Source: Grammothele lineata (lineage: Eukaryota; Basidiomycota; Agaricomycetes; Polyporales; Polyporaceae). From it: a stretch of DNA of 64,000 bases. The stretch is taken from NCBI GenBank assembly GCA_002150815.3, contig NDFF03000045.1:62001-126000 (forward strand), in the 5' to 3' direction. The translations under genes and the position numbers were made by a program. Below the pieces are notes generated by a model. The model was not told the DNA's origin, searched no databases, and saw only the letters and a program-made list of their open reading frames with translations. This document shows, piece by piece, positions 4,973 through 64,000 of this stretch. Every line of letters begins with the position of its first letter. Within the stretch, counting starts at the first letter, position 1.

Positions 4973-6463
4973 TCACGACTGACGGGAGCGACCTTTGTCA
5001 CCCTTACCACCCTTACCACGCTTGCCGCGCTCAGTGCCGTCCTTTCTGCCCTTGCCTCGGAATACGTTCACAGTTTGGAAGATACCGCCATGTTGCTGGC
5101 GATCTTCATCATTGGACTCCTGAGCACTCGCTGGACGAGGAGAGTCGACATCCTTTGACGACTGCGAGTGTGAACAGACACACCGTCAACGCCCCAGCTG
5201 TCGTCGCTAGACGAACCCGAGAATGTTAGGGACGTACCGTTTTCGGACTGGAGGAGGCTTGAGCTCTAGAGGGTCCGGGATACGAGCTTTGCACCTTGGC
5301 TGGATTCTCGGCATGGGGGCGTAACGACGCCTGCGATGCCCGCGATTCCCCCTAGCAATGGATGTAAATGACGACCATTATGTGTCAGTCGATGCTTTGC
5401 TGAAGGAAAACTCTGTCTGAATACGTACGGGGGTTCGCCCTACCCCTGATGTTTTGGCTTTTGGTTTAAAATCCTATAACGCAAATTGCGTGTTGGTTCG
5501 AGGGACGGATGGCTACGACGCGAGACGCACCTCATATTCGTTCTTGGCATTTTGGAGGTTTTCCGGGTTTTCTCTGCACCACATTGTCCACGCCCTGAAC
5601 CTATCAGTACAAATCTCGTCGAGGTCTGCCCAGTGCTGCTTGTCGACCATGAATCCCGCGTGTTTCGTTCTTGGCATTCTCGTCTTTCTCTCCTGCCGAG
5701 TCCCCTCGGGTGTCGTCTCCACCTGAATCTCCTCGTTAACACTCATACGTCCCTCTACAGGTTCGACGTCTCCCTCCCCTTCTCCCTCCTGGGGCGTCTC
5801 CAAATTACCCTTCCACTCCCATCTGCCCTTGACATGCCCCCGCGAAAGGAACGGAAATGCGATGAACCATTGATGTTCCTTCTGCCACTCGGGGCACGTG
5901 TGCACGTGATCGCACTCGACGGAGACCTCGCAGTGCGGCGCGACGGGCAAGCAGAACCGGCGTAGGATGTAGGGACGCTCTTTGAACGTTTTCTTTCTTC
6001 TGTAGCCTGTCATCAGGCACACCCATATCGAGTTCTTGCCCTCGCTCCCCTCCGCGTTCCAGACGATCGCGGGGCGACCGTCGTCCGGGCCCACGGTGCT
6101 GGTGCCGCCGCTGGAGGCATAAGAGGCGAGCGAGGTGACAGATAGCGAGGTGGGGGGCCTCCCATCTCCCTTTAAGGGGGAAGCATCGGGGTTGTCCTGT
6201 AGAGCCGTGGAGGGAGTACGGGGGCTGCTAGAGGGAAAACGCTCGGCAAAGCCCGGGCCGTGACCATCGCGCGCAACGAAGGGAGAGCTGGCATTAAAGA
6301 TCCTGTCGACAGGTGTGTGGACAGACTCCTGGAGCGCTACGATGTCGCGAAACTTGTAGAACTTGTTTGTGGGGTCAACAGAATACCGTGTGAGGTTGGG
6401 GTTGGAGCACGCATGGCATGTGGGGTCGATGGTGGGAGCGATCGTGCTTTGCGTCCGAGGCAT
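4973..6463 (-). CDS. RPCV-family protein (family 2), copy a; partner in pair 1
   Basis: Not a family I can name. Exons 6463-5531, 5473-5444, 5351-5238 and 5161-4973 give 421 residues. The N-terminus holds a CxxC (residues 16-19) and the block RYSVDP; residues 129-135 read GRPAIVW, 170-176 FCLPVAP and 200-205 FIAFPF, separated by His and Cys residues. After the core comes DLDEICTDRF-AW, shared with copy b. The tail is Pro/Ser-rich and ends in a repetitive Gly-Lys-Arg segment (RGKRGKGGKGDKG), a likely nucleic-acid or membrane-contact region by composition only. It stands head to head with the family 1 gene at 6985, 521 bases away. Introns 2 to 4 match copy b in position and phase, which supports the model. 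Confidence 0.78.
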
Positions 6464-6984
6464 AGTCTAGGATGAGTCGTCGTAGCAGTCTTCTGCTCGC
6501 TTCTCCAGATAGTGCAGAACGTCGAGGTGAGTGTCGAGGGCACGAATCCGTACGACTGCGCACCGCCCGTCGAATCATGGATTTGGACCTGGCTTCGCGA
6601 AGCGGATTGAGCGCGTCTTTGCACGTGATGATATAGCATTTGCTCGAACAGCGAAAACAGGACGACGTCAACCACCAGCTGCCAACGGAACTCTCCCAGC
6701 TGCAGGACGTTAGGTGGCACGAGGAGTCTGAATGTGGGAAGTGGTAAAGTTTAAAGTGGCGCTCGTCCCACGTCGGACGCAATATCCACGTGTCCCTGCC
6801 GACCTCGGCTTGGGTAAGCGCGCCACACGAGCCCAAAAATGGCCACGGTTGCTGTTTCGCCTCCCACCGCGATCCATATAGCCAAGTCCCTTCCACCTCA
6901 TTACTCCATCCTTGAGTCATTGTCGTCTATATATCCTTCTGCCGCGTGTGGGCCTATGCAGACCTCTGCGATACCTTCTACCAA
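6464..6984. promoter_or_regulatory. Shared intergenic promoter region of pair 1
   Basis: Only 521 bases separate the two divergent start codons, so both promoters must lie here. A palindromic CACGTG (6787-6792), the core site of bHLH-type factors, and a TATA-like tatatat (about 6931) on the family 1 side are visible. Bidirectional use is inference from layout. Confidence 0.55.
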
Positions 6985-8307
6985 ATGGCTGGCCTAAAGT
7001 TGATGGCTCCCTCTCCTCGATACTACGCCGTCATCCGCATGGATCCCGTGGCAATGGTACAAGGCCTCGAGCTTGACGATCCACAGATGCTGGAGGAGGC
7101 CCGCAAGATGGAGCCTCAAAAGTATTTGGTCTATCTGGACCGCGTAAGTTGCCCTTTCTCACCTTTCACAGCCCTCCCTAGTCTACCCCTTGCCCTGAGG
7201 CCCTTGAGCCTCTCGGACCATATGACTGACTCATCTATTGTCCGTCGAGCAGCCTGTTGAATTACCTTTGCCAAAGAGCCGCTGGACTCGCTTCCGCGTC
7301 TGCCCAATCGGAACCACCCTCCGTCCAGAAGACCCCGAGAGTGGGATCACATCCGATATGGTCGCTCCTATCGCCCCCAACTCGTCCCCCGCTGGCGGCC
7401 ACAGGCCTGTGCAACCCGGGACGCCGTTCCCGTTTCCCAACTGCTGTCACTGGATAGAGAGCAAGCTGGAAGTGCGGGTGAAAGTCCGGCCAGAGGATTA
7501 TGACCACACGGGGGCGGTACGCTTGAGCTCGATGGAGCACCTGGAGCTGATGGAAAGCTTCACGGAGGACTATCGGCGGATTGCTGCGGTGCGGCGGCAG
7601 AAGCAGGCAGAAGAGGCTGAGAAAGCCGATATGGGGCGGTTCACGATGGGCGGGAGCGACTCGGAATCTGAGTCGCTGACGGACAACGGGCGCACCAGCG
7701 TAGAGGGTGCAGCGCCGTCCGTCAGCGACTCAGATTCCGTGTACGACGCGGCGCTCGTCGCGAGCTTCCACTCTGAAGCGCCCTCTGCGTCTTCGTCAGC
7801 TGCAACGACCGTCGATCCCGTCTTCAAAGAGGACATCTTTGGGTGGGATGCAAACCCGCGGATCGTCGAGCGGAAGCCGCTGGTGGATCTGTGGCTTGAG
7901 CTGGACGAACATCTGACTCCCGATACGATACCCAACCCCATGGAACTGCTCGAAGAAAGGAAAATAATACGAAGGTACAGTTCCCTATCTTGCACGACTA
8001 TGATGCATGCGTGGTACTGAATAAGCCGCGGCATAGGATTATCGAAGATGCGTATGCGCGCCGAGGACATGTTCTCCCCGAGGTCCCAGCCAGCCCCGAC
8101 ACGAGTCAGGGCTCGGTCGAAGAGGACGCGCGGGTAGAGAAACCATCCGAACCACCAGTGGACGGGCTACCGCCTTCTGGCGAAAAGCGCACACTGGAGC
8201 AGGAGCATGCTAACGAGGAGAAGGCTGCCGCACGACCGCAGCGCAGGCTACCACTCCGAGTCGGCTTCTGGCGCGCGCTCGTCCGGAGGTTGAGTCAGCG
8301 AGGCTAG
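6985..8307 (+). CDS. NCHW-family protein (family 1), copy A; partner in pair 1
   Basis: Unrecognised family. Exons 6985-7143, 7253-7974 and 8037-8307 give 383 residues. Order of features: RYYAVIRMDP-x-AMV (about 12-24); KYLVYLDR closing exon 1; PLPKSRWTRF and DPESGITSDM-x-API (about 58-95); the family hallmark PFPFPNCCHW (111-120) followed by LEVRVK; a Ser/Asp/Glu-rich low-complexity stretch; VDLWLELDEHL and DTIPNPMELLEE; then RIIEDAYARR across the last intron. The C-terminus (GFWRALVRRLSQRG) can form an amphipathic helix, which may dock on a membrane or partner. No signal peptide. Exon 2 is about 90 per cent identical in protein to copy C at 12.3-13.6 kb, while exon 3 is much less alike. Confidence 0.85.
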
Positions 8308-9449: not shown

Positions 9450-10670
9450 ATGTCAAGCCCCACCATCATGACGGCAAGCATCCAAAAATTCCCCGTTGCT
9501 CGGTCGGGCTATTACGCTGTAATACGTGTCGATGCCGAATCCATGGTTCAGGCTCTCCCTTTCGAAGACCAGCAGATGCAACGGGAAGTACAGGAGATGA
9601 AGAGACAGAAATACTTGATCTACTTCGAGCGCGTAAGCAGCCTTGCTCACCCGGACGTCCTGCAAGATGGTGTGTCTCATAACCATCCCTCAGCCTGTTG
9701 GGCTCCCCTTACCTCACTGCGCCTGGACCGCCTTCAACATCTCTACGGTTGAGGGCAACGATTGCGCAGAGGACCTGGCGAAGGGAATCACTCGCGATAT
9801 GGTTGTACCCATTGCACCCAACACAAAGCACGCTCATGGCCGCAAACCGCTGGAGCCCCTGACGTCCTTCCCATTCCCAAACTGCTCCCACTGTACGAAC
9901 GCGGTGTTAGAAGTGCGAGTGAAGAACCGGCAGGAAGGCTATGATTACAAAAACGCCCTTTACCTCAACTCGCACGAGTACATCGCGTTCAAACGGTATC
10001 GCTCGGAAGATTGTCATCGGCGATTTGGCCAGCAACAGATGATCTCGCAGCGTCAAGAGGCAGGGCAGACTGCCCATGCAAGCACCCCTGAGTCAGGATC
10101 ATCAGAGGAGGTGGGGGGGTACAATGTCGATATGGTCTCATTGGTTGACACAAATGGCCAGCGTGATTCGAATTCAGGACAGCTTACGGACGTCAACTCC
10201 TCTGACGCCAACAGTACATTGTGCTCCATAATAGACATGGCCGACGTCAATCTCGACGACTTCTTCCGCTGGAGTGACGAAGATCGCAGAGTCGTCGAAC
10301 GACAGCTACTGGTCGACTGCTGGTTTGAGCTTGACGAGCATCTGACCGCTGACACCATACCCAACCCTTTCGGCTTATACCAAGAGAAGGAGATTATTGA
10401 AGGGTGAGTACTCTCATATGTAGCTCGAACATATGTCCGCTGATAACGCGCCATGACAGAATTATTGATCGCGCGTACGCGCGACATCCTGCTCCTTTGA
10501 AGATCAGCCCCGCCTCCGAGTGTAACCCCACGTCTGTCTCGAAGGAGGGCAAGTCGGCGCATGAGACAAGAGGGTTGTCGTCACGGGAATCTTTGGAGAA
10601 GCATCATCACGGGCCGAGTTTATCTCGTGTCTGGCGGGCCTTTTGTCGGACGATGTGTTTCAGAGGCTAG
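9450..10670 (+). CDS. NCHW-family protein (family 1), copy B, without a family 2 partner
   Basis: Exons 9450-9632, 9694-10403 and 10460-10670 give 367 residues. It shares GYYAVIRVD, KYLIYFER, GITRDMVVPIAPNTKHAHGR, PFPNCSHC (the usual Trp is Cys here, so NCSHC), VRVKNRQEGYD, VDCWFELDEHL-TADTIPNP and IIDRAYAR. The acidic Ser-rich linker is present. The C-terminus (VWRAFCRTMCFRG) is the Arg/Cys amphipathic tail seen in most copies. Intron positions and phases equal those of copies A and C. Upstream lies the MFS relic, not a family 2 gene. Function unknown; the Trp-to-Cys change in the hallmark motif is directly visible. Confidence 0.83.
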
Positions 10671-12253: not shown

Positions 12254-13558
12254 CTAGCCCAGACACATTCTCCGTGAGAGCGTCCGCCAGAAGCCGTGTG
12301 GTCGCCGCGGACTGCGTGCTGCATCCTCCGCATCGTCTTCGTCGCGTTCTCTCTTTTGTGGTGACCTTGCACCGGCACGCTGCGGTAGCGCGTCCGCTGG
12401 TGGCGTAGACGACTTCTCTGGCAGCGAGTCGTCCGAGACGGAACCCTGGCTGCTCTCCGGTGTAGGTGGAGAGTCGGGGAGGGCGCGTCCTTCATGACGC
12501 TTGTAAGCGTCTTGAATGATCCTGAAGGAAACTTTCGTCAGCACCGAGCATACATGAGATCGTACGAGTGTAGGAACGTACCTTCGTATCGTCTTCCTCT
12601 CTTCAAACAGATCCATGGGATTCGGTATCGTATCGGGGGTGAGATGTTCGTCCAGCTCGAGCCATAGATCCACCAGAGGCTTCCGCTCGACGATCAGCGG
12701 GTTTGCATCCCACCCAAAGATGTCCTCCTTGAACACGGGGTCGATCGTCGTCGCAGCGGACGAAGAGGTAGAGGGCGCCTCAGAGTGGAAGCTTGCGGCG
12801 AGCGCCGCGTCGTACACGGAATCAGAGTCACTGTCGGATGGCGCCGCACACTCTCTGGCACTTTCACCATCCGACAGAGACTCTGATTCCGAGTAGCTTC
12901 CACTCATCGTGAACTGCCCCTTATCGGCTTTCTCAGCCTCTTCTGCCTGCTTCTGCCGCCGCACCGCAGCAATCCGCCGATAGTCTTCCGTGAACCCCTC
13001 TATCAGCTCCAGGTGCTCCATCGAGTCCAGCCGCACCGCCCGAGTGTGGTCATAGTCCTCCGGCCGTACTTTCACCCGCACTTCCAGCTTGCTCTCTATC
13101 CAGTGAAAGCAGTTGGGAAACGGGAACGGCGTCCGAGGCTGCACGGGCCTGTGGCCGCCAGCAGAGGACGAGTTGGGGGCGATAGGGGCGACCATATCGG
13201 AGGTTATCCCGCTCTCGGGATCTTCTGGACGGAGTGTGGTTCCGATCGGACAGACTCGGAAGCGAGTCCAGCGGCTTGTGGGCAGAGGCAGTTCAACAGG
13301 CTATTCGATGGACAATGGATGAGTCAGTATGATTCAAAATGCGCGAGCGCAGGGCAGGGGGTGTAGGGAGAGCTGCGCGAGACGAGAAGGGCAACTTACG
13401 CGGTCCAAATACACCAGGTACTTTTTGGGCTCCATCTTGCGGGCCTCCTCCAGCATCTGCTGGTCGTCGAAGGGGAGGGCCTGCACCATGGCCTCGGGAT
13501 CCATGCGGATGACGGCGTAGTATCGAGGAGAGGGCGACATTAGCTTTAAGCCAGTCAT
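12254..13558 (-). CDS. NCHW-family protein (family 1), copy C; partner in pair 2
   Basis: Exons 13558-13400, 13300-12582 and 12521-12254 give 381 residues. The start was chosen to match copy A (MTGLKLM against MAGLKLM); an in-frame ATG at 13576 would add six residues. All family blocks are present: RYYAVIRMDPEAMVQ, KYLVYLDR, GITSDMVAPIAPN, PFPFPNCFHW, LEVRVKVRPEDYD, VDLWLELDEHL, DTIPNPMDL and RIIQDAYKR, ending in FWRTLSRRMCLG. Exon 2 is close to copy A, including identical runs of about 60 bases, but exon 3 is only about half identical. It is divergent from the family 2 gene at 14036, with 477 bases between start codons. Confidence 0.85.
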
Positions 13559-14035
13559 GGTGTCGAGAGGTATCACAGAGGTATGCGGGAGCCGCCCGCC
13601 ACAGAGAGCTATTTGTACCAGGAGGAGGCAGTGGGGTAACCGGAACTTGGATGACTGGATATGACAGAGGCGGTGAGAAGAGGGTTGGGCCTAGGGACGC
13701 CGAGGCGGCGCAGGGGCAACCATCACCCGTTTTGGGTTTGCATGGTGGCGCACGTTTGTCACGTGGCTACTGCGTCCGATGTTGTACGGGTGTCTGTTTG
13801 CCGGTTTCCCGCATTCATCATGCCGACCGTCCTGGGAGAATCTGGGAAGTCAATATCGCCCTTTTTGCATTGGCGCACATGACTTGAATCGCCCCGACGC
13901 GTCTGCTGTGGCTTCGCGAAGGCGAGTATGCTTGGACTGCGCAGCCTTTCCACTTTGCTCTTTTCCTCCTCGACACTTAGTGACTGATCCTCTAAACCCC
14001 AGTAAACGTCACTGGTACTTCGCTGCTAGCCTTGC
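13559..14035. promoter_or_regulatory. Shared intergenic promoter region of pair 2
   Basis: 477 bases between divergent start codons. A CACGTG palindrome lies at 13760-13765 (context tgtCACGTGgc). Otherwise the sequence is not obviously similar to the pair 1 spacer. Confidence 0.5.
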
Positions 14036-15615
14036 ATGGCTTCCGACGCGGCGACCACGCCAACCCCCCCGCCTCCTACACTTCACCCCGACTGCGAGGC
14101 ATGCGCCAATCCCGACCGTACGCGGTACTCTGTTGACCCTGAAGACACCTTCTACAAGCTCGGGGACATCATCGTCCTTCAGGAGTCCATCCACACTCCA
14201 ATACACCAGCTCTTTGCTCGCTCTCTCTCTGGTGCGCCCAACACCGACGGCGCAAGTTCCTCCCCACCCGTCCCTCCGACCGACCACTCCTCCGCCCCGT
14301 CCACAGCCCCAGACCACCTGGCACCCCCAGTACTCGGGACGAAACGCTCTGCCTCCTCCTTCGCGTCCCAAGCGTCCGGCGCGTCCAGCGTCGGAGCTAG
14401 CAAACGCAGCACCAAACGGCAGGCCTTCCCCAATCGCCCCGCCATCATCTGGGACGTCGAGGGCGCGACACAGCGCGGGACGTTCGCGTGCCTGATGACG
14501 ACGTACGCGGGCGCGCACGCGTTCGCGCATCTCCCGCCCATCCTCCAGAGGTTCTGCCTTCCCGTCGCGCCCCACGCCGCGCTCGAAGTTGGGTGCGAGC
14601 ACGTTCACACGTCACCCGAGTGGCAGAGACCCCATAGCTGGTTCGTCGCCTTTCCGTTCCTCTCGGCCGGACGCGTTAAAGGCCGGTGAGTCTCCTCCGT
14701 GCAAACATATGCAGCGCGCTGTTGACGGAGATGCGAAAGGTGGGAGTTCAGGGCGGGATTGGATCCTCCAGCAGGCGTTGCAGCCGATGGTGAAGGACTC
14801 GCTGGAGAAAAGAAAACCGTTGAAGGAAATGGACATGCCGATGGAGATGGGGACGTCGTGGGTCGCGGTAAGAGTGAAGTAGTACAAGCAAGCATCCTCA
14901 CAGAAGCAAGCGTCCTTGGGGTGAGGACGCCGGACGCCGGGTTCAGAGTGGACAAGCGACAGTGGGCGGTGCTGGACGAGATCTGCACTGCAAAGTTCGC
15001 AGAGTGGGTGGAGTTGTGTACCAAGGACCCGGACAACCTGGAGCGATGCAAGGAGGAGTACGAGGTGCGTCTTCCGTCTTCGATGTCCGTCTGCCTCTGG
15101 TACTGACATACCGCCTATATCTTAGAGATTCAAAGATCAAGGACCCAACGTGAAACGAACTGCAGTACGCGTTTGCTTGCTCCCCCGCTCCCGCGAAGCA
15201 TTTGTTGGTTAACGCTTGGATCGCGCCTCGCCTACTACCCAGGGAGCCTCCCGCGAGACGTTCAACTCCATTGCTCAGAACACGTCGGAGCCTCAACCCC
15301 CAAACATGCCACCGCCCCAGGCCAACCCAGAGCCCGGGCCGTCGCGTCAGCAAGGCTCTCGCCGTCCGTCTGTGCGTTTCTTCAAGCTCACAATGTCACG
15401 TGTTTAGACGAGCATTAATGACGTCACAACTCACTACTCTATCGTAGTCGTCAAAGGAGAACAACTCGGAGCTTTTTCCAGGGAACGTGCGGCTCCCTGG
15501 CCAAGGAAAGAAGCGCGGCCGTGGCGGTGGTCGTGGTCGTGATTTTTGGGATAAGCTGCGGGGGCTCGGTAGGGGACGGGGCGGCCGCGGTGGTGGTGGC
15601 GGCACCAGAACTTGA
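14036..15615 (+). CDS. RPCV-family protein (family 2), copy b; partner in pair 2
   Basis: Exons 14036-14685, 14740-15064, 15126-15164, 15243-15371 and 15448-15615 give 436 residues. It has an N-terminal CEAC, RYSVDP, LQESIHTPI, then NRPAIIW, FCLPVAP, CEHVHTSPEW and WFVAFPFLS-GRVKGRW, followed by DLDEIC-like VLDEICTAKFAEW. The last exon encodes an Arg-Gly box (KKRGRGGGRGRDFWDK followed by RGRGGRGGGGG), a pattern known from RNA-binding proteins. It shares intron phases with copy a but has one extra intron after GRVKGR. Compared with copy a the protein is only about half identical, although the adjoining family 1 genes A and C are far closer to each other. Function unknown. Confidence 0.82.
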
Positions 15616-16208: not shown

Positions 16209-17645
16209 ATGACCCTCAAGTTCCCTCTCATTGGGCTCTATGCAGTGGTCAGGATGGATCCCGTCGCAATGGTCGAGCATCTAAATGATCCTATCGCTCT
16301 GCAACAAGCTCGCGCTCTGATCACAAAGAAGTACCTCGTTTATCTGAAGGACGTACGTCTACCGTGCCAACATCCCCGTTTCGCGTGGAGCTAACTCATA
16401 ATGTACAGCCACGAGAGCTTCCGTGGCCTCACAGCCCATGGTGTCGCTTCGAAGTTGCGTTAATTGCGAACGCACCGCGAGACGAAGAGCCGCTCAAGGG
16501 CATCACCCGCGACATGGTCCTTCCAATCCATCCCAACGTGGAATATGCGAACGGACGTGAACCCCTCCATCCTACACGACCCTTCCCCTTTCCAAACTGC
16601 TTCCACTGGTTCCGTGCGATTACGATCGTGCGCATCCGCGCCATTCCCGAAGGGTATGGAGACGGGTCAGAGGGGATTTATCTCCCTCCAGAAGAACATG
16701 CCCTAATCCTGAAGAATTGCAAGCCTTTCGTTCACCGCATGCTCGAATTTCAGGGGGCAAGACAGGTGGGAAATAATGTAGTAGCGGACGTTACGGAGGA
16801 CGCGGTCGAAGGCCGCAAAGACTCTGGTCGTAACGCCCCCAATGATTCTCGTCCGGAACTGAAAGAGTACGGCACCTCTGAGCCCGCGGCGCCACCACCT
16901 CATATCGTGCAGAACTGCGACGAATACCATATAGCGTCAACGCCGGTGATAAATCGTCCAACGAGTTTACCATCGTCGAGCCCAGCACGCGACCAGGACC
17001 AAGAACACATTCCACACGGTTCCGCCACTAGCCTCGGCATCTTGGTGGACCTGTTTGGGCCGAATTTCAGAGCCGACGAACGATTCATGCCGCTTGTCGA
17101 CCTCTGGTATGACCCTGAGGGGCATTTTACTGCAGACACCATCCCCAATCCCTCCGGCTTACTCGAGGAAGAACAGGCTATTGAAACGTCAGTATGATGG
17201 AATATCGTCAGCTTGATATAGATGTTAACGTGCCTACAGAATCATTTGTGATGCTCTTGCAAGACTGATAGCTCAAGGCAAGCCAATACCACCTGTGCGA
17301 CCGCCACGCCCGCCGCCTTCGTGGACAGAAGAATCAAGCATTAAATACAGCCAGAGCAGCTGCAGCCGCATACACTCTATAGCTTCGTCCACCTGGTCTG
17401 TGCATATCCCCGAGACGACACGTCCTGTAACACCAACATTGTCTGATCGTGCGTCCGTCGAGAGCGCACGCTTCTTTCCCGGTGTGTAACAACGTCTCTA
17501 TTTCAAGCTGACGCGCACTAACGCGCCGCCCTTAGCTCCGAAACCGACAGCGATGCCCAAGGTCATAACGAGAAGAATTCGCCCTTTGTTAAAAAGGTGG
17601 TTAAGACTTCCTCGCCACCTCCCTTTCCTACCATATTGGCCATAG
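16209..17645 (+). CDS. NCHW-family protein (family 1), copy K
   Basis: Exons 16209-16352, 16409-17187, 17240-17481 and 17536-17645 give 424 residues, and phases close exactly. Family blocks: LYAVVRMDPVAMVEHL, KYLVYLKD, GITRDMVLPIHPNVEYANGR, PFPFPNCFHW, VDLWYDPEGHFTADTIPNP, IICDALARL. A Pro- and Ser-rich segment follows. The fourth exon adds a strongly basic, aromatic C-terminus (RRIRPLLKRWLRLPRH) that can form an amphipathic helix, comparable to the short tails of the other copies. It lies in tandem behind family 2 copy b rather than head to head with a partner. Function unknown. Confidence 0.82.
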
Positions 17646-19475: not shown

Positions 19476-19549
19476 GGCCGACTAGCTCAGCTGGTTAGAG
19501 CGTGGTGCTAATAACGCCAAGGTCGTCGGTTCGATCCCGGCGTTGGCCA
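19476..19549 (+). tRNA. tRNA-Ile (anticodon AAU)
   Basis: A 74-base sequence folds into a full cloverleaf: acceptor stem GGCCGAC with GTTGGCC, D-arm GCTC/GAGC, anticodon stem TGGTG/CGCCA with loop CTAATAA (anticodon AAT), and T-arm GTCGG/CCGGC with loop TTCGATC. The discriminator is A. There is no intron. A and B box promoter elements lie in the D and T arms as usual for RNA polymerase III. Confidence 0.97.
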
Positions 19550-39427: not shown

Positions 39428-40735
39428 TCACTGATCCAAACGAACCCAAGAACCTGCTGGGAGAACCTGCAGTGAAAGGACGTCACGTCTGAGTTTGCGT
39501 GTCGTGGGTACGCCGCGGCGAAGGAGTACAAACGCACCCGAAGAAGCCTTTCGTTTGTAATCGGAAGCCGGACGGAGGCTGACCTTCTCCACGATAGTAG
39601 AAGTTTCGGGGGTGGTGGCACCGCTCTTCCACACCGAGTGCCGCTCCCGTTCCTGCGGGAGGCACATGCCAAGGTCGTACCTGATGACAATGTACTCCGG
39701 TGTCCGGTACTCCTTCAGCAGCCTATAGCAACAAATCGGGTCAGTCCTTCCGTGACCGACGTCAACCCCACACGACTGGAGTCCCGGCGGACGCACCGTG
39801 TGACAGCTTCGTACTGGCGCAGGAACTCGACTGGGCTGGGGATGTCCTTCTCGGAGACGTGCGCAGCGAGGTCGAGCCAGAGATTCACGACGGGGATGTA
39901 GCACTTGCGGTCCACCTCGTCGGCTGCGCCGTACAGGTCCACGTTCGAGAAGGATGTCACCCAGGACTCCGGCGACGACTCGGCGTTGCTCACTGCTGAG
40001 TCGGAGTACACAGATGCTGAGTCGCCTGGGTCGGAGTCGTCTTCTGACATCGTCCCCGCAATGAACGAGAGGTGCGAGTCTTGCGAGCCCCAACGCGCAT
40101 CGACGTCGCGCTTGCTCTCCCTTCGCCACTCATTCACAGCCTCCTCGCTCCGGGTTGCAGCTTCCATCTTCATCTTCTCCACCTGCATTCGCTTCCTCCG
40201 AAAGTCGTCCTCGCGACGATCGCGCTCGAGTTTCAGGTATTCCTCGTCAGGGAGCTCGACACCTTCGCCGCGGTGGTATCTGCCGCGCTTGACACGCACA
40301 CGGAGCGCTGCGTCGGATCCCGCCCAGTGCGCACAGTTGGCGAACGGGAATGGAGGATCTGGGCGGACGGGCTCACGGCCAGTGGGGTGCGAGGTGTTTG
40401 GGAAGATCGGGGTGCACATGTCCGCGGCGAGACAGAGGGCGGGATTTGGGGTGCGCACTGGGCCGGGGCCGATGAGGTAGACATAGTAAGTGAAGTCGGG
40501 CGTGTGTGGTGCGGGGAGCTCCTGTATCTGCAAGTGGGGTTGCTACGATATGAGCGTTGACGTACGATGAAAAGCTGGAGGCACTTACAGAATGAAGATA
40601 AATAAGACACTTAGTCGTCTTGATCTCTCGAGCTGCAAAGAAGGCACTGGGGTCGACGATGCCGCGCAGGCTAGACTCCAGATCGATCTCTGCAACGGCG
40701 TAAGTACTGGGGAGCGGAAAACAAGTCATGACCAT
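39428..40735 (-). CDS. NCHW-family protein (family 1), copy F
   Basis: Exons 40735-40589, 40527-39797 and 39722-39428 give 390 residues. A second in-frame ATG at 40729 is also possible. Blocks: STYAVAEIDLESSLRG, KCLIYLHS, ELPAPHTPDFTYYVYLIG, DMCTPIFPNTSHPTGREP, PFPFANCAHW, LRVRVKRGRY, a charged linker, VNLWLDLAAHVSEKDIPSP and FLRQYEAVTR, then LLKEY. The C-terminal part past LLKEY does not resemble the other copies and may hide one more intron. It is divergent from copy G at 42.9 kb, 2.1 kb apart, with no family 2 gene between them. Function unknown. Confidence 0.8.
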
Positions 40736-54429: not shown

Positions 54430-55617
54430 TCACGCGGCCGACGCCGCTTCTGGACCAGCCCGAGTTTGTGAGCGTCTTACAAAGACTTTGTCGGTGTACG
54501 ATCTCAGGGACGATCGAGTACTCCTACGACTTCGAGCGCTCTACGCATGGATGCACACTCGTCAGCTCTGCGTCACGAACGTATCAATGGGAAATCACGC
54601 ACAATGATGCTCGGAGGACGGTTTTCACCGTAGCACGGGGACGTGGGCGGGGTAAATGCAGTCTTCGTTGGGGTCTGCAAGTCACTGTCCTCGTATAGCG
54701 GGGTGAGTGGCGTGCGCGGTAAGGCACTGTATGCAGAAACGACGCTGCGGGAGCTCCCTCGGGAGGCCTACAGAGATTGATACGAGCATGAGTATCGCAG
54801 AGGGCAAAGCAATGATGACATGGACTCACTATTGAGGCGCAGCTCGCGTTGAAGCGAGATTGCTATAGCATCCATTACGGATCAGAACTCGAGTCGAGTA
54901 GAACGGGTTCAGACTCACTCTATATTCGACAGCGCACCTGAGCGCAAACTCCGGGTCGGCCCTGCACAGCTCCTTCCATGCCTTCAGTCGGCTCACCATT
55001 AGTTGTCGGAGCTCCAGCATGTATTCGTATTCGATATGACGAAGTACCCGCGGATACTCTGGCGATGTGCCCGGGTTATTCGGACGATACCACGCACCGC
55101 GAATAAAGCGCTCTGTTGTGAAAGGGATAGCGAGGATGAACTGATTGGGATGTGTCATCTCTGGGACGGCATGCATATGCACGCCGTCCGGTCCTGATTG
55201 AATGTTTGGACGCATGGGAACGACGAAGTGTCGGTATATCGTGGGGAGCGCGTCGTACGGAGTGTCATCGAAGGTTCCCATGAGGCAAACATCGGTCTTC
55301 ATACCGCTCGGCTCGCGACCTTTTCCGTTCCAAGGGGAATAATTGCGACTCTTGAGGATGACGCAGGGGCGAGGCTTGCCACTCTGGCGCTGCTTGAACT
55401 TAGTCAAGTTCGCTTCGCATTGCTGATACGTCGTCGGTGAGTTTTCGAGGTTTGGACTGTCTCGCTGGAGAGTGATTTCTGTGGGAATGCCCATAGTCTC
55501 GTGGATTGAGCAGATGAATCCGGCCTTGTATTTGGCGCGCTCAACTATGACGTCTGGTTGGATAGGCGGAAGGGGGGAGTCAGTCCCTGCGCAGCGGGAA
55601 CATGAATGGCCAGGCAT
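54430..55617 (-). CDS. RPCV-family protein (family 2), copy c; partner in pair 3
   Basis: Exons 55617-54919, 54862-54830, 54767-54603 and 54540-54430 give 335 residues. The N-terminus has CSRC; the core has AKYKAGFICSIHETM, GKPRPCVILKSRNYSP, VCLMGTFDDTPYDALPTIYR, HFVVPMRPN, PNQFILAIPFTTERFIRGAW, and after it LRQLMVSRLKAW-ELCRADPEF. A short exon (QSRFNASCASI) and a Pro/Thr-rich exon (ASRGSSRSVVSAYSALPR) parallel those of copies a and b; the last exon is Arg/Ser-rich. The start was placed at the MPGHSC methionine like copy a; an in-frame ATG at 55692 would add a hydrophobic leader resembling a signal peptide. Divergent from copy H, 790 bases away. Confidence 0.76.
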
Positions 55618-56407
55618 GTGAACGGGATTCAGTAATAGTGTGGAGAGAATCAAAGGTGAGATATAGGAAGTTAAGGCAACGGAAAAAGACACAAGGTACC
55701 TGATGAGGGTCTTGCCTTAATGTATGCGACGGCGAACGACGAGGGGGTCGCCAGAGACGTCTCGGAGATGTTGTTCCCACCATAAGTGACATGAACAATT
55801 GAGAGACAGGTGTACTCACAACGTCGTAGAGGTAAAACAGGCTAACGGGTCAATTGTCTCTTGACATGGCCGAACGCATGGACCAACTTGAAGGCCCGAG
55901 CGGTATTGAGAGACGACGTCTGTGTTACCAACATGTTAAAGGAGTCAACCCGGGAGACGTTCAGTAAACTTGAGTGTCCATTGCGGAGATAAGCATCTCT
56001 TCAAAATGAATACTACCGTCACTTATACGGGTAGTAGGCGCAAATTTTACCTTGTTCGGGAGGGAAAAGCAGGAGGCTGACGTCGAAGAACATGACGTCA
56101 ATACTGGATGCGCGCTCGTTTCCGCCCATTTCGACAAGTATGGAGAAAAAGCGCCTGATCAATTCTCTCGGGAATTGCCGGTAAAGGTCAACTGACGGTC
56201 TGTGCTGCGGCCTTGTAAGCTACGTTGACGACTATACTTCGATCAGGGCCTTGTTCACCTTTTGTCAACGAGCGCATGCTGTTGCCCACGTTGAACTCAT
56301 GTTCCCCTTTTTGTTATCCTTTTCTTTTTGGATAAAAGGTCGACTCGGAGAACCTCCTGGCTTTGATCAAGTTTCCGAGTCCCTCTGAACTTCCACCGAG
56401 ACCCACC
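55618..56407. promoter_or_regulatory. Shared intergenic promoter region of pair 3
   Basis: 790 bases between divergent start codons, or 715 if the longer N-terminus of family 2 copy c is used. Contains a TGACGTCA site (about 56093), the core bound by CREB/ATF-type bZIP factors. No CACGTG here, unlike the four other pairs. Confidence 0.5.
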
Positions 56408-57641
56408 ATGTCGAGGCCAACGAGCTACCCACTTCCTGGTACTTACGCCGTGGCACAGATTGACATTGCCGCAACACTGGCCAGAATAGAAGATCCTGAC
56501 GCCAGAGCGGCTCACTCCCATATCGTGCCTGTCAAGTGTCTCGTCCTTCTCAACTTGGTAAGTTACAGGTGTTATACCTAAGTCTATGGCGAGATGCTCA
56601 CTGCGCATTACTACAGGTGCGACAGTTGCCGCTACCTGGTCGAGAAACGTTCTGCTTTGATGTATACTTCGTCGGCCAAGGGCTGCGCCCAGAGGAGCCG
56701 GAGAAAGGCGCAACTTCGGACATGTGTATCCCCATCTTTCCCGCTGTCGACCATCCCTGCCACCGCCCGCCTTTCCACCCCGAGCCCTCGTTCCCATTCT
56801 CGAACTGCTACCACTGGAGTGGGCAGGAGCTCTGGTTTGAGCTCGACATCAAGAACGGACTCTTCACGCAGACCCCAGGCGAGTTTACATGGCTCCCCGA
56901 CGGCGACGCGGTTATGCTTCATGATCTGTGCGGCGACGACGAAGCAGAAATGGAGATCAACAAGATGGCGAAGCGCGGCGAGAGTATTCCTCGAATGTCC
57001 GCCTTTTCCCCTTTCTTCCCATCTCATACCTGTGATGGCTCCTCTTGCTGCTCGTCTGGCAGCGGCCGGAGCGAGGCCCTCTATTCCACCGGTGACGAAG
57101 ACGACAACTCTACCTTCGACTTGTTTCGGCTGGACGAAGAATCTTGCCGCCCCATCGTTGAGATTAAGCTGGACCTCACGAATCATCTTAAGGACGGCCA
57201 GATCCCCAGCCCACTAGAATTTGTCGAACAATACAACTCTTTCTTCTCGTAAGGTTTCTTCCCATAGCGCTCGCTCTTCATGGACTGACATAGAACCTCT
57301 TTTCACGTGTAGCCTTTTGAAGGAACACAAAGAAGCACAGCTAGCGACGATGCGAGCCGAGCGGGAGGCGAAAGTACAGCGTGAGCTACGAGAGAAACAG
57401 ATATCGCAAGAGAAGAGGATGGCTGAGACTGGAGACACGGAGCGAGGATTAGGTAAGGTCCGGGAGCGAGATGTTTCGGCGCAGGAAATACCTACCCCCA
57501 GCCGACGGGGTGAGTGTCAGCACTCTATTCTGCGTTGGGGCTATCTTGATTGACCGCACGCTGCATCAAGCAGGGCCGTTGTTCGCTTTCAGGGCGCTAT
57601 CTCGACTGTTCTGCGCTGGTGGCCACGGACATCATGAGTAG
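56408..57641 (+). CDS. NCHW-family protein (family 1), copy H; partner in pair 3
   Basis: Exons 56408-56557, 56617-57248, 57313-57509 and 57574-57641 give 348 residues. Blocks: GTYAVAQIDIAATLARI, KCLVLLNL, VRQLPLPGRETFCFDVYFVG, LRPEEPEKGATSDMCIPIFP, PFPFSNCYHW-like SFPFSNCYHWSGQELWFEL, a Cys/Ser-rich linker, VEIKLDLTNHL-KDGQIPSPLEF and LLKEH. A charged helical stretch with many Glu, Arg and Lys follows, then the family tail FRALSRLFCAGG. Phases close at all three junctions. The 3' end lies 235 bases from that of copy I, which runs the other way. Function unknown. Confidence 0.83.
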
Positions 57642-57876
57642 CACGCTCGTCTTTGCCTGACCGCTTCCTGTTCGCACATTCGACGGTCGTTCATTCTTGT
57701 GCTACTTAGTGGCATACCCTATCACATCCGTTCTTGCGAATAATCGATCCCCGTTGACGGACACGTCTGCACCAGGACAAAACCTCAAACTTCTACGTAG
57801 TACGACATCCGCTCAGATAGGGAACTCCATATGAGACAACGTTATGAACCCGCAACGCATGCCGGACCAATAATGA

Positions 57877-59168
57877 TCACTTGCAGAACCATGCACGGAT
57901 GGCACGCAACGCCCACTGTAGGCGATCTGGGCCGTAGAGGGACGATCAGCGCCCGGGGGAATGCGCACAATGAGAACACTCACGCACGAGCCTCTCTCGG
58001 AGGCGAGGCCGAGTTGGCGTCATTGCCGCAAGCAGCAAGTTCTCTATCCCGCTCTCCCGGGAACGAGTCTCTAGACGTCGGTGTATACACGGGACGGCGT
58101 GAACGGGAGCGTCAATGTCACGCTGTAAGATCCTGCAAATCGCAAATATTAGTTGACTGCTAGTGACAATGCACACGTCGGGTACGAAGACGCACCGCGT
58201 CGCAGCCTCGTACTGCTCGAGGAACGCCATTGGGTCCGATATCTCCTCCCTTAGATGGGTAGCCAAATCTGTATACACTCGGAGAGTGGGGAGACATTGA
58301 GGATTTTCGTCGAAGAGCTGATCGCAGGGACAGTCTACCGAGTCAATGCCGTACGAACATTCGGACTCCGAGTACCAAAACGACTCTGCGTCCTCTCCAG
58401 CGTCTGGTACATCCTCTGGCAAGTCGACTGTGGGTTCCTCAAGCGAGACGGTGTTGAGAATGACTTCTTGAGCTTCGGTTGCGGAAGGAACGGGGCCCGC
58501 CACAGTAGCAAGTGGGGCCATCTCGGTTTTCACTGGGGTCTGTTGCACCAGAGGAGACTGCTTCGCCGCAGCGAGTCTTTCTTGCATCCTTGCGTTGTCC
58601 TCCATGCGCAGCTTGTGCATGCGGACATACTCGGGCGGTAGAAGCTCGTACCGTCGCGCGAAAGAGTCTTGCGGAGGCCGGGACGAGGTGTGCTCACCTG
58701 GACCTCTGGGCTCGCCCCACAAACCAAAACCATCCAAAAGCGCCACTCGAAGCTTCGGCTTCATATCAAGTCCAGTCCAGTGGTAACAGTTGCCGAATGG
58801 GAAATCCCTATTTGTTCGTAGGGCTGGTCGTCCATTGGAGTGGTCAACGCCGGGGTGGATTGGTATGCACATGTCGGGGGTGATACCCTGGTCCGGAATG
58901 GCAGTACGCGGACCTTGACTGACAAGGTATGCGCTGTAGATGCACGCCTGTGTCATGCTGTATATGTCGCCGACCTATATGGGTAATGTGTCACACGGAT
59001 TGCATATGCGAATTTTGGCGAACGCACCCCGTCGAGATACATGAGACATTTGAGGGGCTTGAGTGCCTCTATTTCAGAACGAACATCAGGGTTACTTGAT
59101 CCACGGAGGGTGGCCTCGGGGTCGATCTCGGCGACACCATAGCTGGGGCCGGGAAGAAGGGGTTGCAT
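57877..59168 (-). CDS. NCHW-family protein (family 1), copy I; partner in pair 4
   Basis: Exons 59168-59028, 58974-58196, 58132-57984 and 57926-57877 give 372 residues. Blocks: PSYGVAEIDPEATLRGSS, KCLMYLDG, YSMTQACIYSAYLVSQGPR, GITPDMCIPIHPGVDHSNGR, DFPFGNCYHW, a linker ending near VDLPEDVPDAGEDAE, LRVYTDLATHLREE, DPMAFLEQYEAATR and RILQRDIDAPVH. The short fourth exon gives the tail HRLQWALRAIRAWFCK, a Trp/Arg/Cys amphipathic helix; its acceptor was chosen because copy J has the same splice and tail. It is about 70 per cent alike to copy J and part of the duplicated pair 4/pair 5 unit. Function unknown. Confidence 0.83.
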
Positions 59169-59790
59169 AGCTGCGGTGCAGTAAACGGCAGATGGTGGTA
59201 TTCAACGCAGGTCATTCGAACGGACATATATAGGGCGACGCGAAGAAGGGGATGCCAATAGCCATTGTGAGAACAGTGCCAGTCGTAGCGAGTGGCGGCT
59301 CAAGACATAACACGTCGCCTCGAAGCGGAGGCAATGATGTCACGTGCATGAACTCGTGCGGGCGAGACAACCACTGAAGCCTCTGGTAAGCGCTCGGGCG
59401 GGAGGCTCTTGTGTGGCACTTCATCGCTAGTTTGAACAATGGACCTTGAGGTGAACTCATTGTTTTCCCATTCGCCTACTTATACATTTGCACGCTAGAG
59501 CTCTTTCTACACAACAATATCTGGGTCCTCAAGGCTAAGGATATGCCGCTGACCCAACCGAGAGCATAATTACGCGGTAGGCTCATTCGGACATGTACGA
59601 TTACGGTACTCATCATCCAGGCCATCGATTCTTACTAGAGTCCATGAGGACAATGGAAGTTTCCCACAGATGATTTTGTGCTGTGATGGTTATGATATAA
59701 CACAACCACTCCTGCCAGCCCGAGGAGTCGAACCCTCCTCCTCCCCCGACGCCGCTTTCATTCTGTCCTCCCGCTGGTCGTAAGAGCACC
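59169..59790. promoter_or_regulatory. Shared intergenic promoter region of pair 4
   Basis: 622 bases between divergent start codons. CACGTG at 59341-59346 in the context tgtCACGTGca. Just before the family 2 start a CCCGCTGGTCGT block recurs in the pair 5 spacer. Confidence 0.5.
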
Positions 59791-60646
59791 ATGTCACTCC
59801 ACTCTTTCGATATTTCAGCTGCGCCTCAAGATATTCCTGAGCAGGTTATATCTGCTTCAGAATGCTGTGCCGTTCATTCAAATGCTCCAACCAATGGTAC
59901 AGCTGTCGACCAGCTTCAACTTGTTCCCGGGATGGTATATCAGATCATGGACTCATTACGTAGCCCTGCGGAGGAAATTCTCCTCCATAGCCACGGAATA
60001 GCGGACTCACCTCACCTTAGGCAACAGTGCATCAACCGACGGAATCAAATTCGCAGGAAAGGGTCTCCTATAGGAAAGACTCGCCCCTGTGTGGTGCTGC
60101 GCGCGGAACCCGGTGAAGATCCCTTTATCTGCTTGTTCGGGATGTTTGATAAAGTTGAACATTTCACTTCTCTTCCAGATTTATACCAGCACTTCTCCGT
60201 TGCGGTATTCCCGAACTGTCAAGAGGCCCACCGGGGAATCGTCCAAGTGACTCCTCCCATGGAAAATCCCTCGCAATACGTCGTCGCTTATTTGTTTGCG
60301 ACTACGAGACGAATTGTAGGGCCGCGGCGTACCAAGGGAAGGACTCACCGTCTCACTGAGGAAAGCCTCGCATGGCTTCAGAACGAGTGTTTGGCCCGGT
60401 CGAAATCATGGGAGGTGCGCTGCCTTGCCGACCCCACCTTCGCCGCGCGATGTGCGGCCGAGTATAAGGTGCGTCTGACTTACTTCTCGTGCGCTCTTCT
60501 CGAATTCAAGGTCATATCGTACTTATCTTTCGTCGCAGAAAGGCGCTAGGACCGCCTCAAAGGGTTCTCGTACGACCTCGAATATCCAACGCACTCGGCG
60601 TCCCAGACCAGTCATGCAGTCCACCCCGTGCAGAGGCACCACCTGA
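59791..60646 (+). CDS. RPCV-family protein (family 2), copy d; partner in pair 4
   Basis: Exon 1 (59791-60468) is clear; exon 2 was taken as 60539-60646, giving 261 residues, but further exons are possible. Core: VPGMVYQIMDSLRSPAEE (45-62), GKTRPCVVLRAEPGEDPFIC (95-114), FGMFDKVEHFTSLPDLYQHF, SVAVFPNCQEAHRGIVQVTP, SQYVVAYLFATTRRIVG (161-177), WLQNECLARSKSW and CLADPTFAARCAAEYK. Exon 2 is basic (GARTASKGSRTTSNIQRTRR). Downstream, another basic stretch (SRRRRTYGRRK, about 60,671-60,710) could be a last exon. No N-terminal CxxC, unlike copies a to c. The spacing of GMVYxI and RPCVVL recalls PemK/MazF-type barrels, which is only a suggestion. Function unknown. Confidence 0.78.
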
Positions 60647-61496: not shown

Positions 61497-62799
61497 TCAC
61501 TTGCAAATCCAACAGCAGACAGCACGCAACGCCCACCGTAGGCGATCTGGGCCGTGGAACAATGATCAGCGTCCGGGAGAATACACACAATGGGAATACT
61601 CACGCATGAGCCTCTCTCGGAGGCGAGGCCGAGTTGGTGCTATCGCTACAGGCAGCAAGCTCTCCATGCTGCTTTCCCGGGAACGAGTCTCCAGACGTCG
61701 ATGTATACACGGAACGGCGTGGACAGGCGCGTCGACGTCACGCTGTAAGATCCTGCAAATAGCAAATGTTAGCTGACTAGATGGTAATGCACACGTCGGC
61801 CGCGAAGACGCACCGTGTCGCAGCCTCATACTGCTCGAGGAACGCCATTGGGTCAGATATCTCCTCCTCCTTTAGATCGGCGGCCAAGTTCGTCCACACC
61901 CGGAGGGTGGGTAGACATTGGGGATTCTCGTCGAAGAGTTGATCACACTGACAATATATCGAGTCCGACTCAATACCGTACGAACATTCGGACTCCGAGT
62001 AACAGGTCGACTCGGTGTCCTCCATGACGTCTCCAGCATCTGGTATGGCCTCCGGCGGACCGGGTTCCATGATCGAGCGGGAACCGAGTATGACTTCTGA
62101 AACTTCGATTGGGGGCGGGACAGGGTCCATCCCGGGAGCGGCGGGAGTCGCTTGGTCTTGTGCTATGGTCGGTTGCGCCGGAGGACGCGTCGCAGCAGTA
62201 ATCCTTTCTTGCATCTTTGCGATGTCTGCTGAACGCAAATCTTGCATACGGACATACTCGGGTGGGAGAAGCCCATAATACAACAATTGCGAAGGCCGGG
62301 AATGGACGGTCGACGTTTGCTCACCTGTGCTGGGAGCTTCGCGCAGAACACCAATGTCATGCATCAATCTCACCCGGACCTTCGGCCGCACATCCATCCC
62401 AGTCCATTGATAATAGCCAGGAAACGGGAAGTCCAGATCTGTTCTCAGGGCGGGTCGTCCAGAGGAGTGGTCGGTGCTGGGATGGATGGGAATGCACATA
62501 TCGGAAGTAACGCCCTGGTCGGGCAGAGCGATTCGCGGGCCCTTGCCGGCTAAATACGCGGTGTAGATGGATGCCTGCGTCATACCATATATGGCCTCCA
62601 TCTACATAGGAGATAAATAATGCGTTGGACAGTTTCTGTAGGCGAATAGAGGACGTACCCCGTCGAGAAACATGAGACACTTGAGGGGTTTGAGTGCTTC
62701 TATCTCGGCACGAACCTCGGAACTACTCGACCCACAGAGCGTGGCCTCCGGGTCGATGGCGGCGACGACGTAGCAGGGATAGGGAAGAAGAACTGGCAT
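61497..62799 (-). CDS. NCHW-family protein (family 1), copy J with altered core motif; partner in pair 5
   Basis: Exons 62799-62659, 62601-61814, 61752-61604 and 61546-61497 give 375 residues in an unbroken frame. Blocks: CYVVAAIDPEATLCGSS, KCLMFLDG, GMTQASIYTAYLAGKGPR, GVTSDMCIPIHPSTDHSSGR, then DFPFPGYYQW where other copies have NCxHW, so Asn, Cys and His are all replaced (G, Y, Q) and only Trp is kept. LRVWTNLAADLKEE, DPMAFLEQYEAATR and RILQRDVDAPVH follow, and the tail HRLRWALRAVCCWICK. It is the closest relative of copy I and faces family 2 copy e. The loss of the hallmark residues with an otherwise intact gene suggests altered function. Confidence 0.83.
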
Positions 62800-63498
62800 C
62801 GCTGCTGGGTAGTGAAAGGGGGATGGCGGTGGTCCCGATACATTGGGGAAGGATTTTATAGGTCTTCCCAAAGATGTGAACAATCGCCATTTATTGTGAG
62901 AACAGTGGAGAGAGACAAAGCAAGCTGTACTAATTTCGACCAGCGGCGGAGTCCGGACTCCGATCCGTCGCTTCGCCAGAGGGCAGGAGTCACGTGCACC
63001 GGATCGCTTCTCCGGATCGGGATACCGGCTGGCGGCGCTACCAGACTGGGACGACAATGGCGTCAGTAGTAAGTACTTTCGAAGCCACCGTCACTTGCTC
63101 CCCACATCGATTTCATAAACAGCGTTTCTCGGAAATCTGTTTCGAACAATGACCACCCGGGTAAATAACAGTCCATGTACCCGCACGCTCGAAATCCTCC
63201 CAGACAATGGGAGCAACGTTCACATCGCGGAGGTACCACTGCTGGAGTCAAGGGCAGCCCTCGCCGGTCCAGTTGTCTCATGACAATTAACATCTACACG
63301 CCGCCGCCGCGGAAGTCACGGCTCGTCATGAGCAATGATTGCTTTTCAGAGACTTTTTAGGTACTCATAAAGCCCTATATAACATCGCAACCGCTGGTGC
63401 GGGGAGCCAACCCCGCTACGCTCTTCCTTCGCTCTCCCGCTGGTCGTCGAGGCCTTGTGTTTCTTATTCCTTCCACACTCCTTAATATTGTCCATACT
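62800..63498. promoter_or_regulatory. Shared intergenic promoter region of pair 5
   Basis: 699 bases between divergent start codons. CACGTG at 62991-62996 in the context agtCACGTGca, at a distance from the family 1 start (about 190 bases) close to that in pair 4 (about 175). A CCCGCTGGTCGT block near 63,440 matches pair 4. Confidence 0.5.
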
Positions 63499-64000
63499 AT
63501 GTCCACTCTAGAGCATTCTAGTCTCCAGTCAGATGCTTCAACTAATTGTACCGCTGTAGATCGCTTTGAGCTCGTCCCCGGAATGCTTTATCAGATTCGG
63601 GAATCCCTGCGCAGCCCCGCAGAAAGAATTATTCTCGATAGCCACGGAATAGAAGAATCTCCTCCTCTTATGCGACAATGTGCTAACGAACTCAAACAGA
63701 TTCGCCACGAAGGTTCTCCCATAGGAAAGACACGTCCCTGCGTGGTGCTCCACGCTAATCTCGGTGAAGCCCCGTTTGTTTGTTTGTTTGGAACTTTTGA
63801 AAAAATCGAGAATTTCTCGTCTCTTCCTGTTCTTTACCAGCATTTTGCGGTTTCGGTATTTCCGAACTGTCAAGAGGCCCATCGAGGTATCGTTCAAGTG
63901 ACCCCTCCACTAAAGAAGACATCACAATACGTCGTCGCTTTTCCGTTTGCGACCCAGAGACGGATTGTAGGGCCATGGCGTACGGGCAAGAAAACTCACA
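63499..64000 (+). CDS. RPCV-family protein (family 2), copy e, cut by the window end; partner in pair 5
   Basis: An open frame of 167 codons from ATG 63499 runs off the window. It matches copy d closely: VPGMLYQIRESLRSPAER, GKTRPCVVLHANLGEAPFVC, FGTFEKIENFSSLPVLYQHF, SVFPNCQEAHRGIVQVTP, SQYVVAFPFATQRRIVGPW. Copies d and e share an N-terminus without CxxC. The matching family 1 genes I and J are also close, so the whole pair was duplicated in tandem. Function unknown. Confidence 0.83.
   Translation, partial: MSTLEHSSLQSDASTNCTAVDRFELVPGMLYQIRESLRSPAERIILDSHGIEESPPLMRQCANELKQIRHEGSPIGKTRPCVVLHANLGEAPFVCLFGTFEKIENFSSLPVLYQHFAVSVFPNCQEAHRGIVQVTPPLKKTSQYVVAFPFATQRRIVGPWRTGKKTH

What the first reader, a model, noticed from the sequence alone, without database searches (positions are those of the whole stretch)
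4973..64000. A two-gene system: five head-to-head pairs of two unrecognised families
Every family 2 (RPCV) gene in the window stands head to head with a family 1 (NCHW) gene: 4973-6463/6985-8307, 12254-13558/14036-15615, 54430-55617/56408-57641, 57877-59168/59791-60646 and 61497-62799/63499 onward. Start codons are 477-790 bp apart. The pair occurs in both orientations and its members have diverged strongly, yet the partnership and polarity never break. That is hard to explain by chance and points to co-expression from one promoter and joint function. Analogy with known paired conflict or recognition loci is inference; no product could be named.
Basis: partly seen in the sequence, partly recalled or inferred. 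Interest (0 to 1): 0.93.

Follow-up and report, generated by a model that had tools for sequence, protein, structure and literature searches.

The report
Paired mushroom genes sharing a promoter
In a wood-decay fungus, five pairs of undescribed genes stand back to back at one spot; both partners may share the fold of a bacterial RNA-cutting toxin, which hints at a built-in toxin-and-antidote or recognition system, though nothing has been tested in the laboratory.

Summary
The five head-to-head pairs are real; start codons are 521, 477, 790, 622 and 699 bp apart. Four protein queries against the 41.8-Mb assembly (a Polyporales fungus, inferred) find only these five F2 (RPCV) genes, apart from weak stop-containing rows. 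All five face an F1 (NCHW) gene. The rule is one-sided: of at least 13 F1 genes, 8 lack an F2 partner. The pairs fall in three lineages. Paired F1 genes as one clade are rejected, and the eight genes in duplicated pairs show purifying selection. Four of five spacers carry CACGTG 173-202 bp before the F1 start; so does one unpaired F1 gene.

The parts
4973..6463 (-). F2a gene (RPCV family), lysine/glycine-rich tail; first exon 5531-6463
6464..6984 (.). shared spacer of pair 1 (521 bp); CACGTG at 6622 and 6787
6985..8307 (+). F1a gene (NCHW family), exons 6985-7143, 7253-7974, 8037-8307
9450..10670 (+). F1b, unpaired F1 gene; CACGTG at 9264 (181 bp upstream)
12254..13558 (-). F1c gene, inverted duplicate of F1a (79% aa identity)
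13559..14035 (.). shared spacer of pair 2 (477 bp); CACGTG at 13760
14036..15615 (+). F2b gene; first exon 14036-14686; later exons not resolved, one open frame of the end is Gly/Arg-rich
16209..17489 (+). F1d, unpaired F1 gene
29196..29852 (+). F1e, divergent F1 member, unpaired; only the N-terminal exon matches clearly, end uncertain
32534..33584 (+). F1f, divergent F1 member, no F2 partner; end uncertain
39427..40735 (-). F1g, unpaired F1 gene, close to Epithele typhae P0005
42858..44143 (+). F1h, unpaired F1 gene; 3' end uncertain
54430..55617 (-). F2c gene; first exon 54919-55617
55618..56407 (.). shared spacer of pair 3 (790 bp); no CACGTG, one TGACGTCA at 56093
56408..57660 (+). F1i gene; 3' end uncertain (reader gave 57641)
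57877..59168 (-). F1j gene; clear exons 59028-59168 and about 58196-58974, last exon uncertain
59169..59790 (.). shared spacer of pair 4 (622 bp); CACGTG at 59341
59791..60646 (+). F2d gene; first exon 59791-60468
61497..62799 (-). F1k gene; clear exons 62659-62799 and about 61814-62601, last exon uncertain
62800..63498 (.). shared spacer of pair 5 (699 bp); CACGTG at 62991
63499..64000 (+). F2e gene, runs past the window end (C42:125499 onward; first exon read whole in L005)

Best explanation
F1 and F2 are two anciently diverged families that probably share one fold, the MazF/PemK-type beta-barrel, and are kept as a divergent gene pair on one shared control region. I think the products form a heteromer in which F2 is the nucleic-acid-binding, possibly RNA-cutting, member. 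F2 keeps Arg-Pro on the strand where MazF carries its catalytic Arg and usually has a Thr on the next strand; F2a, and perhaps F2b, end in a Gly/Lys/Arg-rich tail. F1 would be its matched partner and restrainer: a similar barrel with Lys on the matching strand, then an acidic linker that could occupy the RNA groove, as the acidic MazE tail is thought to do in bacteria. Several diverged pairs side by side would give several insulated specificities, useful for self/non-self recognition or defence. Shown: the gene pairs, constraint, three lineages, the CACGTG element. Predicted: the fold. Inferred: heteromer, activity, restraint, role.
For: Five of 5 F2 genes are divergent from an F1 gene. Paired F1 genes lie in separate parts of the F1 tree and one clade is rejected. 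dN/dS is 0.17-0.44 in four duplicate comparisons.

Sequence: HHalign puts F2 R83-P84 on E. coli MazF R29-P30; 2 of 200 column shuffles score as high (5 of 200 with F2 shuffled). F2 against F1: 0 of 200. Arg-Pro is invariant in 7 of 7 F2 sequences. Thr stands at one of two adjacent positions in 6 of 7 (alignment). In B. cereus MazF, Arg25 and Thr48 changes severely reduce cleavage (PMC7354611, passages).

The F1 linker is net -7 to -24 in 9 of 9 genes. The acidic MazE tail is thought to mimic RNA in MazF's active site (PMC5408214, passages). CACGTG is in 4 of 5 spacers.

Against: The F2 model rests on 7 sequences; the five models score 66.5, 53.0, 43.4, 41.0 and 40.2 mean pLDDT, and 120 of 233 residues reach 70 in the best. 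The F1 model is of a relative (P0005), not of a window gene.

F1 against MazF by sequence is not significant (34 of 200 shuffles). PF02452 finds nothing in the genome while ringing in 3 of 14 controls, nor in F1 or F2 rows. F2d lacks the Thr. F2 is only mildly charged (net +8 to -3, mostly first exons). Eight F1 genes live without F2, which does not suit a dedicated antidote. No expression or interaction data exist here.
Confidence: 0.33

Rival explanations
1. Self/non-self or mating-like recognition by matched heterodimers: each pair encodes two partners, and specificity lies in which F1 binds which F2, as with HD1/HD2 or TgrB1/TgrC1. No nuclease need be involved.
For: Several paralogous divergent pairs at one locus is the HD-locus pattern in many mushrooms (PMC8305134, passages). 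[quoted passage not shown] the proteins heterodimerise and one partner diverges more (PMC12324515, a preprint, passages). Here F1a/F1c are 79% and F2a/F2b 50% identical.
Against: No homeodomain or other family above its cut-off in F1 or F2. Average dN/dS below 0.5 shows no overall diversifying selection. No population data.
Confidence: 0.2
2. Inertia of descent: one divergent pair was duplicated in segments, the arrangement was simply inherited, and the partners have no joint function.
For: Two of the five pairs are duplicates of two others. Label shuffling within F1/F2 slots reaches 5 pairs in 4.4% of trials. Eight of 13 F1 genes are unpaired. On the F1 tree the paired label needs 3 changes, and 145 of 500 shuffles need as few.
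Against: Synonymous sites are saturated between pair 3 and pair 4, and pairs occur in both orientations, yet no F2 found here lacks its F1 neighbour. Between duplicated pairs only short spacer stretches of 11-29 bp still align, while CACGTG persists.
Confidence: 0.25
3. F1 and F2 are SH3-like barrels used as RNA, chromatin or peptide readers; the likeness to MazF is general barrel geometry without toxin ancestry.
Against: MazF-type rows fill the top of both VIA lists with nearly full-domain coverage, and F2 aligns its Arg-Pro strand to that of MazF without use of structure.
Confidence: 0.22

Closest known systems
MazF/PemK endoribonuclease toxins (Pfam PF02452)
   Same: Probable barrel fold of both families; in F2 Arg-Pro on the second strand and usually a Thr on the third; an acidic partner segment
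   Different: No sequence-profile match; eukaryotic, intron-bearing, larger proteins with a helical insertion (F2) and low-confidence linkers and tails; genes divergent, not an operon; the partner is itself modelled as a barrel
HD1/HD2 mating-type pairs of Agaricomycetes
   Same: Several paralogous divergent pairs in one locus of a mushroom-forming fungus
   Different: No homeodomain match in either partner; F1 often occurs alone
TgrB1/TgrC1 allorecognition pairs of Dictyostelium
   Same: Paired diverging genes on a shared promoter region, several pairs, partners diverging at unequal rates
   Different: Those are recognition proteins of an amoeba; no known domain is seen here, and heterodimerisation is untested
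Uncharacterised Polyporaceae proteins (e.g. Epithele typhae BXZ73DRAFT_100548; Trametes, Lenzites, Ganoderma, Lentinus, Earliella)
   Same: They are the F1 family
   Different: Those with a name are listed as hypothetical or uncharacterised; whether F2 stands beside them could not be checked

Membership tests
MazF/PemK (PF02452) | match to the sequence profile | tested here: not met
   0 matches in the genome at E<=10, control rings in 3 of 14 genomes; F2 rows 0 of 7 at E<=10 and no toxin model in NCBIfam; F1 rows 0 of 30 at E<=1
MazF/PemK (PF02452) | MazF-type barrel fold | tested here: inconclusive
MazF/PemK (PF02452) | catalytic Arg and Thr on strands 2 and 3 | tested here: inconclusive
   F2: Arg 7 of 7, Thr at one of two adjacent positions 6 of 7. 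F1: Lys on the corresponding strand in 9 of 9 window genes, matched by strand order only
MazF/PemK (PF02452) | co-transcribed MazE/PemI-type antitoxin gene | tested here: not met
   The neighbour of each F2 start is F1, divergent and modelled as a barrel
MazF/PemK (PF02452) | sequence-specific RNA cleavage | not testable with these tools
   needs purified protein
HD1/HD2 mating-type locus | homeodomain in both partners | tested here: not met
   no Pfam homeodomain match in F1 or F2 rows
HD1/HD2 mating-type locus | divergent gene pairs, often several | tested here: met
   five pairs
HD1/HD2 mating-type locus | flanking mip and beta-fg genes | not tested
   no dedicated search; ten neighbouring open frames gave kinase and Efg1 above cut-off, aldo/keto reductase and others below it
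TgrB1/TgrC1-type allorecognition | diverging pair on one promoter, polymorphic, heterodimerising | tested here: inconclusive
   arrangement met; polymorphism and binding not testable here

The most novel reading that the evidence does not exclude
A eukaryotic toxin/antidote-like system in which both halves descend from a MazF-type RNA-cutting toxin: the antidote (F1) is a tamed copy of the toxin fold with an acidic RNA-mimicking arm, and pairs are multiplied at one locus to give parallel, mutually insulated self/non-self specificities in polypore fungi.
Probability: 0.15. Interest if true: 0.92.

Novelty: new variant of a known kind. Interest (0 to 1): 0.62.

Why it matters
If right, it adds an undescribed paired gene system to mushroom-forming fungi and would bring MazF-type barrels into eukaryotes as a two-partner system. 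It offers concrete candidates for recognition or defence in polypores. The pair architecture plus the predicted shared fold makes a sharp bench prediction: F2 toxic or RNA-binding alone, relieved by its own F1 and not, or less well, by another pair's F1.

Tried and rejected
Searches that led nowhere: Pfam on 9 proteins (two chance matches, E 1.7 and 1.1), on 30 F1 rows (chance matches below cut-off) and 7 F2 rows (none); NCBIfam on F2 (two chance matches, one row each); PDB by sequence with both profiles (chance matches); PF02452 genome-wide; Foldseek against PDB and, with F1, against viral models (none at E <= 0.001); viral contigs with both profiles (no confirmed relative).

F2 protein homologues: only two environmental proteins (P0001, P0002), against 21 for F1. 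F2 is rare or hard to find; the tool needs shared exact words, so absence from other polypores is not shown.

Degenerate F2 beside unpaired F1 genes: none found by an F2 profile over the window and 12 fetched 10-kb stretches. The best stray match (L032 5034-5102, E 0.021, 23 profile positions) was judged chance.

Considered and rejected: mating-type HD locus (no homeodomain); one recent clade of paired F1 genes (rejected); decayed pairs (dN/dS below 0.5 where measurable). F1 as a sequence-detectable MazF relative was not supported (34 of 200 shuffles).

Rows left out: P0017 and P0023 from alignment A5 (19 of 21 database proteins); P0023 from the tree (20 of 21); one of 80 MazF loci by a length filter (E. 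coli plus 79 used).

Literature: seven searches listed 7 of 7, 1 of 1 (62), 15 of 144 (64), 2 of 2 (80), 15 of 25 (81), 0 (89) and 8 of 5,123 (93) papers. By the titles and abstract openings of those listed, none is about these families or about MazF-like proteins encoded by fungi; the unlisted ones were not seen. I saw passages only of PMC5408214, PMC7354611, PMC12324515 and PMC8305134. The E. coli catalytic numbering (Arg29, Thr52) is recalled.

Searches were made for that check.
Full report
What was checked. The window is contig C42:62001-126000 of a 41.8-Mb assembly in 252 contigs. The named relatives of the F1 family are polypores: Epithele, Trametes, Lenzites, Ganoderma, Lentinus, Earliella and others. 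The genome itself is unnamed; Polyporales is my inference.

The pairs. F2 (RPCV) genes start at 6463(-), 14036(+), 55617(-), 59791(+) and 63499(+). Each faces an F1 (NCHW) gene, starting at 6985(+), 13558(-), 56408(+), 59168(-) and 62799(-). The spacers are 521, 477, 790, 622 and 699 bp. The nine clear F1 genes share a first exon of about 50-60 codons, a long second exon with a PFPNCxHW-like motif, an acidic stretch and a PLVDLW-like motif, with variations. Only F2 exon 1 is well fixed; some 3' ends are uncertain.

Census. Queries F2c, F2b, F2d and P0002 against the whole genome return five F2 genes, all here. Three weaker rows on other contigs (E 0.06-0.93, one stop each) are not counted. F1 queries return nine clear genes in the window, two divergent ones (29196, 32534), and one each on C233 and C246; one weak row on C46 (E 0.74) is not counted. 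So 5 of 5 F2 but 5 of 13 F1 are paired. No convincing F2 lies in the 20 kb fetched around each of the two outlying F1 genes, nor beside unpaired F1 genes in the window.

How surprising is the pairing. With 28 hand-listed gene slots, 5 head-to-head F1/F2 pairs arise in 60 of 200,000 shuffles over all slots, but in 8,741 of 200,000 when labels move only among F1/F2 slots. Pairs 1/2 and 4/5 are duplicates. Counting therefore gives a modest case, and lineage depth adds to it. In a 31-protein tree the paired F1 genes fall in separate places and one clade is rejected (p-AU 3.9e-84); the deepest split is weakly supported (68/64), and the paired label is no more clustered than chance (3 changes, 145 of 500 shuffles as low). 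F2 relationships run parallel by identity: F2a with F2b, F2d with F2e, F2c apart. No F2 tree was built.

Selection. dN/dS by a simple Nei-Gojobori count is 0.22 (F1a/F1c), 0.44 (F2a/F2b, first exons), 0.27 (F1j/F1k) and 0.17 (F2d/F2e), so these eight genes are constrained. F1i and F2c could not be measured because synonymous sites are saturated. dS differs within duplicated pairs (0.59 against 1.17; 0.93 against 1.40). This could mean gene conversion in F1 or unequal rates.

Promoter. Only short stretches (11-29 bp) of the spacers still align between duplicates, yet CACGTG occurs in 4 of 5. In F1a, F1c, F1j and F1k it lies 193, 202, 173 and 192 bp upstream of the F1 start (F1a has a second at 358). 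The unpaired F1b has it at 181. It is absent from the 800 bp upstream of F1d-F1i. Five of the window's 17 sites fall in spacers covering 4.9% of it (binomial p 0.001). Over the 800 bp upstream of all 16 F1 and F2 genes it is 6 of 17 against 2.6 expected (p 0.033). The motif was noticed by eye and a k-mer scan and the copies share ancestry, so these p-values are optimistic. The pair-3 spacer lacks it. The fixed distance ties it to F1; whether it also drives F2 is open.

Sequence link. With 80 MazF sequences (E. coli and 79 relatives), HHalign places F2 81-122 on E. coli MazF 27-61, with R83-P84 opposite R29-P30. The raw HH probability is only 8.9%. Reversed-sequence controls score far lower. 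Two of 200 column shuffles of MazF score as high, 5 of 200 when F2 is shuffled. F1 against F2 aligns a 'PI-PN' segment, probability 4.6%, with 0 of 200 shuffles as high. F1 against MazF is not significant, 34 of 200. F2 T115 falls opposite Thr53, the residue after the recalled catalytic Thr52. At these two positions 6 of 7 F2 sequences hold a Thr; F2d holds none (alignment).

Mechanism. In B. [quoted passage not shown] The same passages note that one M. tuberculosis MazF has Lys instead of the Arg, so a Lys does not prove F1 inactive. An acidic MazE tail is thought to mimic RNA in the active site (PMC5408214, passages). F2 keeps the Arg; F2a ends in a Lys/Gly-rich tail, and one open frame at the end of F2b is Arg/Gly-rich. 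F1 has Lys on the corresponding strand in 9 of 9 window genes (by strand order, no residue-level superposition) and a linker of net charge -7 to -24. From this I infer a heteromer with F2 as the active or RNA-binding half and F1 as restrainer. The eight F1 genes without F2 argue that F1 has a life of its own, or that F2 was lost there.

Comparison. [quoted passage not shown] Neither is matched by domain. Sequence membership in PF02452 was tested and not met, so I do not file F1 or F2 as MazF; I say only that they may work like it.

Verdict. Joint function is plausible but unproven.

Noticed in passing
5008-5161 and 15449-15615: The end of F2a reads as Lys/Gly-rich, and one open frame at the end of F2b as Arg/Gly-rich (a second frame is open too): tails like those of RNA-binding proteins.
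   Followed up: partly
6463-8307 and 12254-15615: Within the inverted duplicate pair, F1a/F1c are 79% and F2a/F2b only 50% identical, with dS 0.59 against 1.17: possible gene conversion in F1 or faster F2 evolution.
   Followed up: partly
3747-4022 and 31196-31387: Two genes share a 72-residue stretch (49% identity, E 6e-18) with 'FETLFVGT..SG....QGP.GTRVHIP': a second small duplicated family in the window (no Pfam match for the first piece).
   Followed up: partly
46830-49313: Protein kinase gene (Pfam Pkinase) with an FHA domain upstream (PF00498, E 2e-5); perhaps a Rad53-like checkpoint kinase (name recalled).
   Followed up: partly
23113-24075: Efg1 rRNA-processing protein (PF10153, E 1.7e-31), a housekeeping gene between F1/F2 blocks.
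   Followed up: no
19476-19549: tRNA-Ile (AAT) by ARAGORN with the bacterial code.
   Followed up: no
29196-29852 and 32534-33584: Two F1 members keep the first exon but have strongly diverged bodies without the NCHW motif; the body of the second finds no other match in the genome.
   Followed up: partly
39427-44143: F1g and F1h are themselves divergent neighbours, but 2.1 kb apart and both F1; no F2 trace lies between them.
   Followed up: partly
L032:5034-5102: Stray 23-position match to the F2 profile (E 0.021) on contig C233, about 5 kb from an F1 gene; probably chance.
   Followed up: no
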